Below are positions 30,892 to 60,500 of a stretch of 64,000 nucleotides of DNA, piece after piece. The stretch is from Apostichopus japonicus (lineage: Eukaryota; Echinodermata; Holothuroidea; Aspidochirotida; Stichopodidae), in assembly GCF_037975245.1 (NCBI RefSeq), contig NC_092574.1:19189713-19253712 (forward strand). The letters run 5' to 3'. The notes under the pieces were generated by a model, which was not told the DNA's origin, made no database searches, and saw nothing but the letters and a program-made list of their open reading frames with translations. The position numbers were made by a program, and so were the translations under genes. How positions within the stretch are numbered: the stretch's first letter is position 1; every line of letters begins with the position of its first letter.

Positions 30892-31095
30892 TTGACAAAT
30901 GAAGTTAAGAAACGCTTAAGCACATAACAGTGTCTGACTTGGTTGCTCTCGATTCTTATCCGGCGGGTATCTCGAAAAACAAATCGAAATTTTATGGACT
31001 TGCTACAAGTAGGTTTCACGGGACGGTGCTTGATAGAGATGGTGTTCGGGAGAACTGCTATCGGTAATTGTAACTCACTGCTAATAATGTCTATT

Positions 31096-31286
31096 ACTTT
31101 TTAAGAAAAAGTCGCCCAGGAAAGAACCTGGGCACGAAATCCAAACTACCAAAGACTGATCCGCTCTCAACCCCAGTCCCCTTGCATTAGGACTGTGACT
31201 GTGTGATCATCGTCGGGTGTGCATCAACATTCCCCTCGAAATGAAACACTACTACACATGATCTTAGCCAAAAAGCCGAGAAGCGA
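31096..31286 (-). mobile_element. Retroposed element headed by the 5' end of U2 snRNA (SINE-like)
   Basis: On the minus strand, 31287 onward reads ATCGCTTCTCGGC, TTTTTGGCTAAGATCA and GTGTAGTA, matching the first 38 or so bases of U2 snRNA with two mismatches and keeping the GUAGUA branch-point-pairing bases. Downstream the sequence is not U2: there is no branch-loop/Sm-site region. It ends with a hairpin GCCCAGG-TTCTTT-CCTGGGC and a short GACTTTTTCTTAAAAAGT tail. The 14-bp string TAATAATGTCTATT lies directly at both ends (31082-31095 and 31287-31300), a target duplication that shows LINE-mediated insertion of an RNA copy. U1/U2-headed SINEs (SINEU) are known from crocodilians; a one-off template-switch chimera is the alternative. 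It lies about 200 bp upstream of the centrin start codon, on the same strand. Confidence 0.8.
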
Positions 31287-31775
31287 TAATAATGTCTATT
31301 GTATGGAGCGTTCATGTGTGAAAACGGACTCAATGTATGACGGACCCAAAGTAAAATACAGGATCCCAAACAGCCACAGTACTTTCATCGGTACATTATG
31401 AAATAATATAAACAGTTGTACGAAGCACTGAAGTTTGTCTTTTGCTACCGACTCGTCCACTCGATAGTGGTGTGGAATGCGGACTGGACAAACACACATG
31501 AAATTCCTACTGATCCACTCCTGAATATTTCTATTACTTTTTGTTAATGACCAATGCGGTAAGAATCAAGAACAAATAACTTCCTCATCATTCTTGTAAG
31601 AACAAATGATATTCAGTCACTTTCACTGTACGGTAGCAGGCTATTCTCGCGTCAAGTTTACATTGCCACATCATGATATTTCAGTTCAGGGGCGCAACCA
31701 CATAGCCACATATACTCACCCCCCCCCCCCCACTCCTCCCTCTTCTTCCCACTGTCACACTGGTTATAAAAATTT

Positions 31776-54500: not shown

Positions 54501-57500
54501 GCTTTCAGAATTAATAAGTACAAAATACCACCAACGACAGCACTAACATCACTGTCACCATTACTGCCAACAATGACATAACCACTGACTAGCTAGCTGC
54601 TATCACAACCACTACACTATCACTGCCACCAATATCAGCAGGAACATCATGACTTAATCTTGTAGGAGCACATGAGAATATTGTTTACTCACCTTGTTGC
54701 TGACTAGATATTCCCCCATATCCTTTGCTATCTTTTTATCTACATCTATGATACTCTTGGAAGCAATAAATGTTTGGTAGATATCTGTGGCCTTCATGTG
54801 TTGGTCCTGGGGCTGTACAAACAAAACAAGCACAGGAACAACAATTGAGCTGGCTACAATCTTTATGTTGGTTTTATGGTGATCTATCCACTAAAGGAAA
54901 ACAACATTCTCACAAAAACTTTACTATGAATTTTGACAAACTTTGCATGTAGTTAATTGACAGCTTTTAGCAAACAAACCAATATTTATATATTTTAAAG
55001 AAGAAATCAAGACCAAGAGTGTAAAAGGAGAGTAAGGAATTCTGACGGAAGGCCTTGACAGACCACCTACTGTGATCTTCTGTAGTGAAAAAAAGCGGTT
55101 AAAACTTTAATCTGTTTTTGAGAGCGAAAGAAGGGATTATTTGCTACATCGTTTGGAACAAAATATTGAGATAAGGTTTCAATGAGTAGCCTAGGGAGGA
55201 CTACTTTAGTCTTTCCCCCTTCAAGGCTAACATTGCTTGCCCGTGGAATTCCTGTTTAATAATGAGTTCATTTATAATTTGTGCATTCTTGCAAAGAATG
55301 CAAAACCCTGGTAAAAGAAGTACTTTCATTTGAGAATATGCTGGTTGGCTGCGGGGCAAGGATGACTGAGGTGGACGGGGGAATAGTTGTCGCTTAGTCA
55401 AAGTTCATAATGAAATACAGTTTGAATTCTAATGGCCTGGTTTACAATACATTACATAACAAAGAAAATCAAGTCGTCGGATCCTGGGAGTGAAAGACAT
55501 GAAATCTAGAGTTGTCAGTCAGTTTTCAATTATTCCCATCTTATCACATGTACATGTATCACATGTACCGTCATGATCGGGATTTCACAGCGAACGGAGG
55601 GGGACTAATTACGTATATTTCCAAGGAATGGGCTATCGGTATTCCCAAGGTTTGTCTCACTCTCTCTGATCCGGACATAGAGTTACTCGCTGTGAGAACC
55701 CGGCCACGATTCCTTCCTAGTGATATATCGAATATCACTATTGTTAACGTTTATATCAGGCCATCAGCGGTTTTCTCTCTGGCCGATGTGAAATTGAAGA
55801 GAGCAGTGACAGAAATCATGAAGGAGAACCCGCGTTCCAGCATAATACTATTGGGAGATATAAATCGAAGCAACATCGCTTTCCTTGAGACAATGGGCTT
55901 TCAAAACCTTGTGGACTTTGCTACCTTCCCGCGATCTGGTTCCATATTAGACGCTGTATATGTCAACAATCATTACTACAGGGCAACAAGACGCCATCCC
56001 ATCGGATCGTCGGACCACTACTCAATTTGTATCATGCCTAAGTATACGGAAAAGCACAGAGAGACCAAGCAGAGGCCCAGGAGAAGGGAAAGGGACATTA
56101 GAGACAACAATTTATGTATTCTTCGTGAGACCATAGCCTCTACGGACTGGAATATCTTCACGGAAACCTGCCCTACACTCAACGAACTGACTGAAGTGGT
56201 TTCGTGTTATATTCAATTTGTATCGGACATCTGCGTTCCAACTAGAACTGTACCAACTGCGGAAATGATGAAGAGATTACCGGCCGACGATAATATTAGA
56301 CTAATGGAAGAACGAAAAAAGAAGGCAATTGAGGTGGGGAACAACGCAGAACGGAATAGGTTGCAGCGGACTATAAATAGATACATCTATAGGAAGAGGA
56401 GTGAACACTTCGAGAGGATAGCGACGGATTCCACGTCATTATGGAACTTTCTGAAATCAGTGCGGAATCCTCACAAAAAATGATAACAAGGTCACCATAT
56501 CGAGGGAGCTTGGATCTAAGCTAGACACCCACTTCGGCCGATTCAACAGTGCGGTTATAAAGGACATTACTCTGAACTTACCGCACCGCTCTGTCAATGA
56601 CACTCCTGGAATAGAACGAGATCAGGTTAAAAGACAGTTTGGACTTGTCAAGCGAGGTGTCGCATCAGGTATTGATAACATACCCTGGTGGGTTTTTAAA
56701 TATTGCTCAAATGAAATTGCTGACATTTTCACAGTCATTTTCAATAAAAGTATTAAACAGAGTATTATTCCATCTGACTGGAAACATGCCAAAACTACTC
56801 CTGTGCCCAAAATTTGCAGTCCTGCTTCAGTAAATGATTATCGCCCAATTGATATATCAAGCATAGGGTTCAGTTGTTTGCAAAAGTTATTACTTTCGTA
56901 TGTCACACAATCCATTGATGAACATGGTGATCCAAATCAGTTTGCGTACAGAAAAGGTATCTCGTGCACTGATGCAATCCTCACCCTTGTCCATGGCATA
57001 GTGTCTGGGCTAAACTGTAAACAGACGACAATATCTAAAGTCCTATTTCTGGACTTTTCAAGTGCATTTAATACAGTCCTGCCCAATCGTCTACTAAATG
57101 ACCTGTGTAACTTCATCGATGAGCCATGGCTCATTCATTGGCTTAGGGATTTCATGCAGGGATGGTCGAGACAAGTTAAACTAGACAAAGGCTATACAAC
57201 AACTTCTGAAATCAGAGTAGGAGTTCCACAAGGTGGCCCTCTATCAGCCCTATTGTTTACTATTTATACAGATTGCATTCGCTCTAATTCTAATTGCTCA
57301 GTAATTAAATATGCTGATGACACTGTTTTATCGTGCAATATCACCAAAGGCTCCCACCAGCAAAATCAGCATGAGTATCAAGATTTTATCACTAGTATAG
57401 TTAGCACTTGCGACCAGAAGAACCTACTTCTCAACAAAAAGAAGTGTAAGGAAATGGTTTTCGAAAACGTCAATATTAAGCACAGGGGTTTAATCGAGAA

Positions 57501-60500
57501 GAGAGACGAGAGGACAATTATTCACAATACATCCGTTGAACGTACTTCCAGTACAATGTATCTAGGAGTCTGCATTGACAACAAGCTGACGTTTTCAAAT
57601 CATATTTCGAAGGTATTAGCCAAGGTGTATCACATTGTCGCCACACTCATGTATATTGCTCCTCACTTTCCTGTCCATATACGGGAACGGGTGTTTGAGG
57701 CCTCTATCTTGCCAAATATAATATATGCTGTCCCGGTCTGGTATCACTTTGTCCAAATAAAAGATAAGAAAAGATTATTAAGTTTCCTGAGATACTGTGA
57801 GAGAATCTTTGGATTAAATCATAACCTACTTAAAGATAAAGTTAATACGGCTGCTAGGAAGGAATTTGAGAGGCTACTAAATAACATCCAAAGAAATGAA
57901 GGACACCCACTCCATTGTGCAATAAACTCTCTGTGCAATAAGACAAACTACAATTTGAGGAATGCTGCAATAACTCCCAGATTCAGGATTGAACTTTATA
58001 GGAATTCTTTTGTTTATAGGGCGTCCATGTTCATACAGCATGGTGCTCTAGAACCATTGTTGTGATTTTGTTTTTCAGTGTTTTGTCTAGTATTTACTAT
58101 TTTATATCTTTATCATAATTTTATTTATTTTCCTATTTATAAATTTTTAATGATTTATACTGGAAATAAAGAATTGAATTGAATTGAATGGACTGCCATT
58201 CCTGCAGCCTCTTCACAGGGGAATTCAGGCATGAAATGTCAGTACTACATACCTTTTTACATGTCTTCATGGATTCAACGGATACCCAAAAGCTGAAAGA
58301 AATGGCAGGGTCAATATTGAAAAACAGACAGTGTTGCAGTGGTCATTAATCTGACAAGTTATTATTTGAGTAAAGTAAAAATAGGATCATGTAAAGTGAG
58401 CAACAAACTTGACAGAATGTTGCACTTCAGATGTTATTTTTTTAGCAAAGAAACATTGCAGGAAATGTTAATTCTTATGAAGTGAATGTGATAAGTATGC
58501 GGTAAGTATTTTAATATTCAATATTGATATCTTTAGTATACTTATAATATTTTCAAATTTGACCTCTAACTAATCACTGTAATTATATGTTTCCATTATG
58601 TATTTCTTTTCCGATTTATAAATTTATATTTATACTGGAATAAATATAAAAAAATATATATATAATTCACATCAATTTGAAATTTGAAAATAATGTCTTA
58701 ACATGCTCAGTTGGTAGAAAACAGGACTTGTCATCCTTGTGGTGAATGATATGAATCCATTTCTAGCTTAAAATTCCTTTGCTCTTTTTGAAAATCTGTT
58801 TATAATTCCCCCGCCAGTTTTTCCATTGTTAAGTTGATATTTCACTTCTGACAACAATAATCACCACTCACTGTAGTAAGTCCTCTTTCCCTTCTTTAGT
58901 CAGGAATATTTTCAATGAATCTCTTCCCATTTCGTCCGCCAATATTTCATCCAGGCTCAACAGTCTCTGATGAGGTTTCGGCCCTGTCTCTGTTGATGAG
59001 GTGGTAAAGTAAGACCCGTAGGCTGCTCCCCCGACAAGCTGCACCCGCTTCTCGCAATGAGTCTTGGCAACTTTGCACTGGAAGAGTTGAAGAGGTTTGA
59101 GTCACAATACAATAAAATATCTGTCAAAATCGTTCTTCCTGGAGGAAAGTCTGAATTCACCACCTCTCAGCAAAGGAAGAGGGTGATGTGAGGTGGAGGT
59201 GGGGGAGGGGGAGGGTTGGAGGAAAATATAAATTATCAACATTTGGGGAGGGGTAGGGAGAATAATGATGACATTAGTTAGTTCCACGGCTTAGGTGGTG
59301 ACTTGACATGCTGTAGTGAGAATGGAGGGGAGTAGGAGGGGGTGGGGGGCTTACTCTCCTCTGTTGGTAATCAAAGAAATTTATATGATTAATGCAAAAG
59401 CCTTTTTTATGGTTACCTGTTTTGTAGTATGCACATGCTGTGTTTCTTAACATGTTTAATTTATTGCAAGTTTTCAACAATAACATGAACTGTGTTATAC
59501 CAGCTAATAACCCTGGTATGTATTGACTAACCAGATTGTAACTCAAGAAAAGGTAAGGAGGTATTTTATAAACTGATATATAAACAACAGCCATGTTTGA
59601 TGCATAGGCTTCAGGGCCCCCAACACCAGGGGGAGGGGGAAAACAGATCCCTCCCCAATAATTTTCAGAGTGATGATTTTTCACATGGGTATGTTGATGC
59701 AATAGGCAGCAGATGCAACACCACTGTAGTTTGGTCTGACACCTGCTCACCCCCTCCCCCCCCCATCTCCAACCTTTGTCAGGGTCCCTGGTTTCACTGC
59801 CTTCAAAAGTATATTAAACCAGCTGGAACTCACAGGACTTATGCTGAAACTGTTTTAAGTTATCTAATGAAACAATGATACGCCCAATTTTAATCCTAAC
59901 ACGTCTCTTTACCTGATTAATATATCTCCTCAGGTTTCTAGCTCTCAGTAAATCACTCTTACTGTTTCCCTTAGGAATCTTATCTGCCTCTAACTTTCTG
60001 GTTTTCTTCAAATCATCTAAGATGGTTGCATGCATGATTTCAGTCAAAATATGGTACCTGATTCAAAAGAAATGACAAAATGGCTAAAAGAAAGTTTTCT
60101 TCAAGAACACTAGAAATGATGAGTTGCATTGCAATGAATGTAATATATTAATACATAATCTATTGTGGATACTACCTTGAACAATGACATAACTAAAATA
60201 CATTGGTTAATTCATGTAAATGGGTTAACATAGTCCTCATAATTTATTTGAACATAATCCTGATAAATTTTGTAATAGTTAAAGACATTTATTGAACAAT
60301 TTTCACATAGCACAAAAACCACATACATGAAATTATCCATAACACCCCAACCCTGCAACTACACCTCTCTCCCCACTATCCCCCCCCCCCACCCCAACAC
60401 ACACCTGCCCTTTGCTGTTTATGCTGGCACCATCACTCAATAACTATATTTATTGCACATAAATACCTCATTTGTAATAATTCATCGATATCGTTGCACT

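What the first reader, a model, noticed from the sequence alone, without database searches (positions are those of the whole stretch)
31082..31300. U2 snRNA-headed retroposed element with a perfect 14-bp target duplication
Seen: about 38 bases of the U2 5' end with two changes, then unrelated sequence ending in a 7-bp hairpin and short tail, bracketed exactly by TAATAATGTCTATT. Known: SINE heads nearly always come from tRNA, 7SL or 5S; U1/U2 heads (SINEU) are described in crocodilians. Inference: this is either a member of an undescribed invertebrate snRNA-headed SINE family or a template-switch chimera between U2 and another RNA. The head keeps the branch-point-pairing GUAGUA, so a transcript could in principle compete for branch points.
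Basis: partly seen in the sequence, partly recalled or inferred. Interest (0 to 1): 0.78.

Follow-up and report, generated by a model that had tools for sequence, protein, structure and literature searches.

The report
U2 gene-resident, U2-headed SINE-like family
The window holds one of more than a thousand copies of a small jumping element, probably from a sea cucumber, that also sits inside the animal's own U2 splicing-RNA genes, which probably explains why every complete copy begins with the first 45 letters of U2.

Summary
The element (minus strand, 31287-31095) is one copy of a dispersed family: 1,275 genome places keep the U2/body junction and 159 a second junction type, controls zero. 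Copies have target duplications (20 of 40, against 0.7% of 1,560 mismatched pairings) and 5' truncations. The 195-nt consensus head equals host U2 nt 1-45 exactly. The host is most likely Apostichopus japonicus.

The decisive result: the same body lies inside U2 snRNA genes of a tandem array on C16, at U2 nt 38/39. Three kinds of LINE with long open frames use the same site. The region upstream of the invaded U2 genes is intact. The head is thus the 5' part of the target gene: 38 nt plus a 7-nt duplication.

Best explanation: a non-autonomous passenger of U2-specific LINEs, transcribed from the U2 promoter, which re-enters U2 genes and spills over elsewhere. Anatomy is shown; transcription, LINE partner and array-to-genome direction are inferred. 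The main dispersed junction type was not found in the array.

The parts
31095..31287 (-). whole element (consensus nt 1-195, 193 nt here)
   Evidence: alignment of the window copy to the 40-copy consensus: 184 identities, 9 mismatches, 2 gap positions
31244..31287 (-). head: U2 nt 1-45 (nt 39-45 mutated in this copy)
31138..31243 (-). body, not U2 (consensus nt 46-152)
31095..31137 (-). 3' end: G+C-rich hairpin, T5 run, A/T hairpin, ending AAAAAGTA (consensus nt 153-195)
31082..31095 (.). target duplication TAATAATGTCTATT, copy 1 (last base shared with the element's end)
31287..31300 (.). target duplication, copy 2 (first base shared with U2 nt 1)

Best explanation
The element is a non-autonomous retrotransposon whose home is the U2 snRNA gene. 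Shown: its body is inserted in U2 genes of the C16 array at nt 38/39, a site that LINEs with an APE-type endonuclease also occupy in the same array; the complete unit reads U2 upstream region, U2 nt 1-38, TCTGTTC, body, AAAAAGTA, then U2 from nt 39 (TCTGTTC again). Inferred: the U2 promoter makes an RNA that starts at U2 +1, so the RNA carries U2 nt 1-45 as head. A protein of a U2-site LINE nicks a target, starts reverse transcription at the AAAAAGUA/UCUG point and inserts the cDNA. In a U2 gene the head can pair with the upstream half of the target and give a seamless join, or the cDNA stops early and leaves a shortened body with a longer duplication. When the nick falls elsewhere, at loosely A|TCT-like sites, the head is left there as foreign sequence; the window copy is one of these. 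Dispersed copies carry no recognised promoter, so amplification probably depends on few U2-resident sources.
For: Head identical to host U2 nt 1-45 including the host-specific T30. 45 = 38 + the 7-nt duplication TCTGTTC seen in the array units. Body in U2 genes: 4 insertions in the 41.7 kb of array read; 8 SINE/U2 3' junctions genome-wide, 6 of them in the array, reversed-pattern control 0. All 6 array junctions have the same 3' point, but 5' ends differ: seamless after nt 45 (ARR2-4), U2 to nt 53 with the body from nt 72 (ARR1), body from nt 124 with a 15-nt duplication behind a LINE end (L119), two copies in one gene (L120). 400 nt upstream of four invaded genes differ from an intact gene by 0, 0, 0 and 1. 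LINEs A, B, C end at the same U2 point; frames of 410-510 and 1,153-1,162 codons; RVT_1 and Exo_endo_phos. Array junction variants CCCTTA and CCCCTC recur at other chromosomal places. Dispersed sites weakly resemble the U2 site. No B box within 3 mismatches and a T4-T5 run inside 67 of 67 copies read.
Against: No RNA data. The main dispersed junction type (CCCTTTCGAGGGG, 1,275 places) was not seen at the 6 array junctions; only a decayed U2 copy on C20 has a similar type beside U2 nt 39-190. ARR1's junction has no dispersed copy. The variant CCCTTC is common elsewhere but not in the array insertions seen. Shared 1-2-base junction variants could be recurrent mutations, and flanks of those 159 places were not read. 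The hairpin is not shared with LINE A, B or C. The site resemblance is weak (4.46 of 13 against 3.43) and the A at -1 is ambiguous with the element's last base. Array turnover can multiply one insertion, so ARR2-4 may not be independent.
Confidence: 0.74

Rival explanations
1. The U2 head was captured once by template switching or RNA ligation between U2 snRNA and a body RNA, as proposed for U6/LINE-1 chimeras. The headed family then spread from some other source gene, and the copies in U2 genes are secondary landings, not the source.
For: Such chimeras are described for LINE-1 (PMC13174262, passages). The main dispersed junction type is missing from the array insertions seen. ARR1 has no dispersed progeny.
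Against: It does not predict that the head ends exactly at 38 + 7 nt of the U2 site used by the LINEs, nor single-headed seamless units in U2 genes. It leaves the promoter of the dispersed family unexplained.
Confidence: 0.2
2. An ordinary SINE transcribed by RNA polymerase III from an internal promoter, whose head happens to resemble U2.
For: An A-box-like stretch, TGGCTAAGATCA, with 2 mismatches lies in the head.
Against: No B box within 3 mismatches in the consensus; all 67 copies read pass through a T4-T5 run near the 3' end; the head equals host U2 over 45 nt.
Confidence: 0.04
3. A U2 retropseudogene, a divergent U2 gene or a one-off chimera.
For: A dispersed copy passes the Rfam U2 cut-off, 53.1 against 46 bits.
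Against: Over a thousand places share the non-U2 body or junction; nt 46-195 do not align credibly to host U2.
Confidence: 0.01

Closest known systems
SINEU (Kojima 2015, snRNA-headed SINEs)
   Same: Short retroposed family whose head comes from a U1 or U2 gene (title and citing passages seen; the paper itself is not held).
   Different: Recalled, not read: SINEU is crocodilian, with heads added repeatedly and a Tx1-type LINE targeting a mariner element. Here the host is an echinoderm, and body-bearing copies lie inside U2 genes at a LINE target site.
Keno and Utopia (U2-specific LINEs)
   Same: Same insertion point, U2 nt 39 being the first base downstream (PMC4640811, section 4 part 1, section 8 and passages). 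The array LINEs have an APE-type endonuclease as stated there for Keno.
   Different: Those encode proteins. This element is 195 nt without coding capacity and disperses widely. The array LINEs were not placed on a tree with reference Keno sequences.
R2 elements cotranscribed with rRNA genes
   Same: No promoter of its own, expression thought to come from the invaded host gene (PMC2881922, passage).
   Different: R2 lives in rRNA genes and encodes its protein. Non-autonomous R2 derivatives and R2's use of upstream 28S sequence for the 5' join are recalled only.
U6/LINE-1 chimeric insertions
   Same: snRNA 5' part joined to retroposed sequence (PMC13174262, passages).
   Different: Those arise as separate chimeric events; here one fixed chimera is a multicopy family.

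Membership tests
SINE (general) | short, non-coding, dispersed copies with target duplications | tested here: met
SINE (general) | head derived from a small RNA gene | tested here: met
   host U2 nt 1-45, identical
SINE (general) | internal Pol III promoter (A and B box) | tested here: not met
   consensus scan: no B box within 3 mismatches, one A-box-like stretch in the head; T4-T5 run inside 67 of 67 copies. Hence 'SINE-like' is used.
SINE (general) | 3' end shared with a partner LINE | tested here: inconclusive
   only AAAGTA-type ends shared with array LINEs B and C; hairpin seen with other upstream sequence at one place, a truncated copy; LINEs elsewhere not searched
SINEU | U1- or U2-derived head | tested here: met
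SINEU | common descent with crocodilian SINEU bodies or tails | not tested
   no SINEU sequence at hand; paper not held
passenger of U2-specific LINEs (Keno/Utopia type) | insertion at U2 nt 38/39 | tested here: met
   6 array junctions; site from PMC4640811
passenger of U2-specific LINEs (Keno/Utopia type) | U2-site LINE with endonuclease and reverse transcriptase in the same genome | tested here: met
   LINEs A, B, C; pieces of A and B and the whole ORF2 frame of C were scanned
passenger of U2-specific LINEs (Keno/Utopia type) | mobilised by that LINE's protein | not testable with these tools
   needs a biochemical or cell assay
U2 snRNA gene or pseudogene | U2 homology beyond nt 45 | tested here: not met

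The most novel reading that the evidence does not exclude
A SINE-like passenger of U2-gene-specific LINEs that uses the host U2 gene in three ways: as promoter, as homology arm for seamless re-entry, and as the source of its head. It would be a non-autonomous element at home in snRNA genes and a concrete birth route for snRNA-headed SINEs, in which the head is the upstream half of the target gene and not a captured RNA.
Probability: 0.68. Interest if true: 0.85.

Novelty: new variant of a known kind. Interest (0 to 1): 0.77.

Why it matters
snRNA-headed SINEs pose a puzzle: U1 and U2 genes have no internal promoter that could travel with the head (established knowledge, recalled). Here a headed family and body-bearing U2 genes are found in one genome, next to LINEs that use the same site, so the source of head and promoter can be tested directly. 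It also touches annotation. A dispersed copy passes Rfam's U2 cut-off, and the published A. japonicus annotation lists 996 spliceosomal RNAs called with Infernal/Rfam and 159,644 bp of SINE (PMC10344927). The 1,275 junction places at about 190 bp each would come to about 240 kb (my arithmetic, assuming near-complete copies), so most of this family cannot be in that SINE class. How the animal keeps enough working U2 genes while several elements share one site is a further question.

Tried and rejected
Tail shared with another element: the only place with the hairpin behind a changed upstream (L106, one mismatch allowed) proved to be a truncated copy inside another repeat, because relatives of its upstream part stop where the tail begins. 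An origin at the Utopia/Keno junction first seemed excluded, since the head is 45 and not 38 nt; the 7-nt duplication in the array resolved this. Dispersed progeny of ARR1: none; the only match is ARR1 itself. The head/body junction in viral contigs: none. Body from another known RNA: in a cmscan of one copy, L010, at E up to 10, only U2 reached its cut-off. A search for headless bodies by a negated-upstream pattern never got an answer. Instead, of 40 places scored by body alone, 27 not yet held were fetched, and 27 of 27 keep at least head nt 35-45; the other 13 came from the search with the headed window element.

Literature: ten searches ran. In the listings and passages I saw there was no U2-headed SINE other than SINEU and no non-autonomous element in U2 genes. 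The library holds only open-licence PMC papers, and most listed papers were not opened. Kojima 2015 on SINEU is not held; what I say of its content beyond the title and citing passages is recalled.

Corrections: notes imply more array insertions than there are; the stretch read holds 4 (note 102), and the later junction search gives 6 for the array. Of the 67 copies read, two pairs share flanks and are probably duplicated segments: L040 with L094, and L034 with L045; they were not removed before the counts.

Full report
Observation. The 14-bp repeat TAATAATGTCTATT brackets the feature at 31082-31095 and 31287-31300, and the minus strand begins with 38 nt of U2. The window has no Rfam match at the gathering cut-off and no tRNA.

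Genome of origin. The window lies in a 671,581,487-base, 35-contig assembly. A 16,099-bp contig reads COX1 through with the echinoderm mitochondrial code. The published Apostichopus japonicus assembly has 671.60 Mb, 34 scaffolds, 23 chromosomes of 18.21-46.02 Mb and scaffold N50 29.65 Mb (PMC10344927, passages and section 14); here C23 has 18.20 Mb, C16 46.04 Mb and C4 29.64 Mb. The species name is inferred from these.

A family. The window element matched 49 places, with 40 of 2,158 candidates scored. The body alone (nt 46-195) gave 2,295 candidates, and one of the 40 scored is identical to the consensus over 150 nt. The U2/body junction TCTGTTCCCTTTCGAGGGGAATGGTGATG occurs 1,275 times with up to 3 mismatches, reversed-pattern control 0. 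A second junction type occurs 159 times, control 0. I read 67 copies: the window copy, 39 chosen by similarity to it, and 27 chosen by body. The 39 and the 27 diverge from the consensus by about 2% on average, the window copy by 4.7%. These are top-scoring copies, so the family as a whole is probably more diverged. Target duplications score 8 or more in 20 of 40 copies, against 0.7% of 1,560 mismatched pairings. With the later criterion they are clear in 28 of 67, median length 14; the other 39 of 67 gave no clear duplication. 47 of 67 start at nt 1-5 and 20 later, down to nt 35. Two pairs of the 67 share flanks and are probably duplicated segments.

Head. In a search with human U2, 40 of 1,064 candidates were scored: 36 on C16, in an array with 645-bp spacing, and 4 on C15. 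The host U2 genes read have T at nt 30 where human U2 has A. The element's consensus has the same T and is identical to host U2 over nt 1-45; beyond that only patchy, non-credible alignment appears. The predicted RNA is strongly folded (-75.8 kcal/mol, z -4.3).

The element inside U2 genes. Host U2 loci contained the body. The unit is: U2 upstream region, U2 nt 1-45, body, AAAAAGTA, then U2 from nt 39. The 41.7 kb of array read holds 4 such insertions and 17 uninterrupted U2 genes. The 3' junction TTAAAAAGTATCTGTTCTTTTCAG, up to 2 mismatches, occurs 8 times in the genome, control 0: 6 in the array, one beside a decayed U2 copy on C20, one on C5 where a copy is nested in the head of another dispersed copy. 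The 5' ends differ. ARR2, ARR3 and ARR4 are joined after U2 nt 45 (ARR4 with one U2 change). ARR1 has U2 to nt 53 and the body from nt 72. L119 has the body from nt 124, bracketed by TCTGTTCTTTTCAGC, behind the end of a LINE. L120 has two copies in one gene, the outer one shortened. One 3' point with several truncations speaks for repeated target-primed insertion, although array turnover can multiply single insertions. The 400 nt upstream of four invaded genes differ from an intact gene by 0, 0, 0 and 1.

LINEs at the same site. Inserts of 5.0-5.3 kb (LINE A twice nearly complete, B and C once each, plus end pieces of A) end at the same U2 point. Frames between stops are 410-510 codons (ORF1) and 1,153-1,162 codons (ORF2). 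ORF2 carries RVT_1 and Exo_endo_phos (whole frame for C, 973- and 955-residue pieces for B and A). PMC4640811 gives the same U2 site for Keno, with an APE-like endonuclease, and for Utopia, with a restriction-like one. It says that only Keno and Utopia had been reported for U2, and that crocodilian Utopia lands at U2-like sites elsewhere. 'Keno-like' here rests on site and endonuclease type, not on a tree. LINE B and C end in AAAAGTA and AAAGTA before TCTG, like the element; LINE A ends in AAAAGAAA. The element's hairpin is in none of them.

Array and dispersed copies. The 6 array junctions all have T at nt 176, a minority base in dispersed copies (11 of 40). CCCTTC is common elsewhere but not in the array insertions seen. 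The main dispersed type is not among them; the C20 copy has a similar type. Lost sources are plausible because U2 arrays turn over, but that is inference. ARR1's junction has no dispersed copy.

Dispersed sites. The base after the element is followed by C in 33 of 67, and flanks start with TCT in 9 of 67 against 2% in the window. Over 13 positions, 28 sites match the U2 site at 4.46 against 3.43 in background (p 3.5e-4); part of that is the A at -1, which is ambiguous with the element's last base. The window's own site is not U2-like.

Promoter. The consensus has an A-box-like stretch in the head and no B box within 3 mismatches. 59 copies have a T5 run and 8 a T4 run near the 3' end, which the copies pass through. 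This fits Pol II better than Pol III, but no RNA data were available.

Mechanism. Site, head length, upstream integrity and co-resident LINEs are shown. Transcription from the U2 promoter, mobilisation by a U2-site LINE, pairing of the head with the target, and the array-to-genome direction are inferred. [quoted passage not shown] R2's use of upstream 28S sequence for precise 5' joins is recalled.

Known and new. SINEU is the only class of snRNA-headed SINE that I met in ten searches, through titles and citing passages; the original paper is not held. What appears new is the residence of such an element in U2 genes beside U2-site LINEs, and the origin of the head that follows from it.

Noticed in passing
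L107, L108, L109, L110 (C16:31058600-31131018): Three kinds of U2-site LINE with long open frames coexist in one U2 array, some next to each other or with the SINE-like element in one gene.
   Followed up: partly
L010:401-477: A dispersed copy scores 53.1 bits with Rfam's U2 model (cut-off 46); such copies may be counted as U2 genes in annotations.
   Followed up: partly
G000 C3:3635243-3635784, C6:8389828-8390011, C16:11765835-11766018: Junction copies at exact spacings of 171 bp (C3) and 153 bp (C6, C16): short tandem arrays made of the element.
   Followed up: no
G000 C5:11042418-11066020: Eight junction copies about 3-4 kb apart, all in one direction: probably carried in a larger tandem unit.
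   Followed up: no
L126 (C5:22560555): A copy inserted at the GTA/TCTGTTC point in the U2-derived head of another dispersed copy, so heads serve as new target sites.
   Followed up: partly
window 55512-58065 (+): Two long frames, one with endonuclease-like and one with reverse-transcriptase-like sequence by eye: a damaged LINE.
   Followed up: no
G000 C29 (31,219 bp): COX1 in five pieces with TGA codons: mitochondrial DNA in the nucleus or a misassembly.
   Followed up: no
L040 and L094; L034 and L045: Pairs of copies with the same flanks, about 0.2 Mb (C15) and 0.07 Mb (C17) apart: duplicated segments.
   Followed up: no
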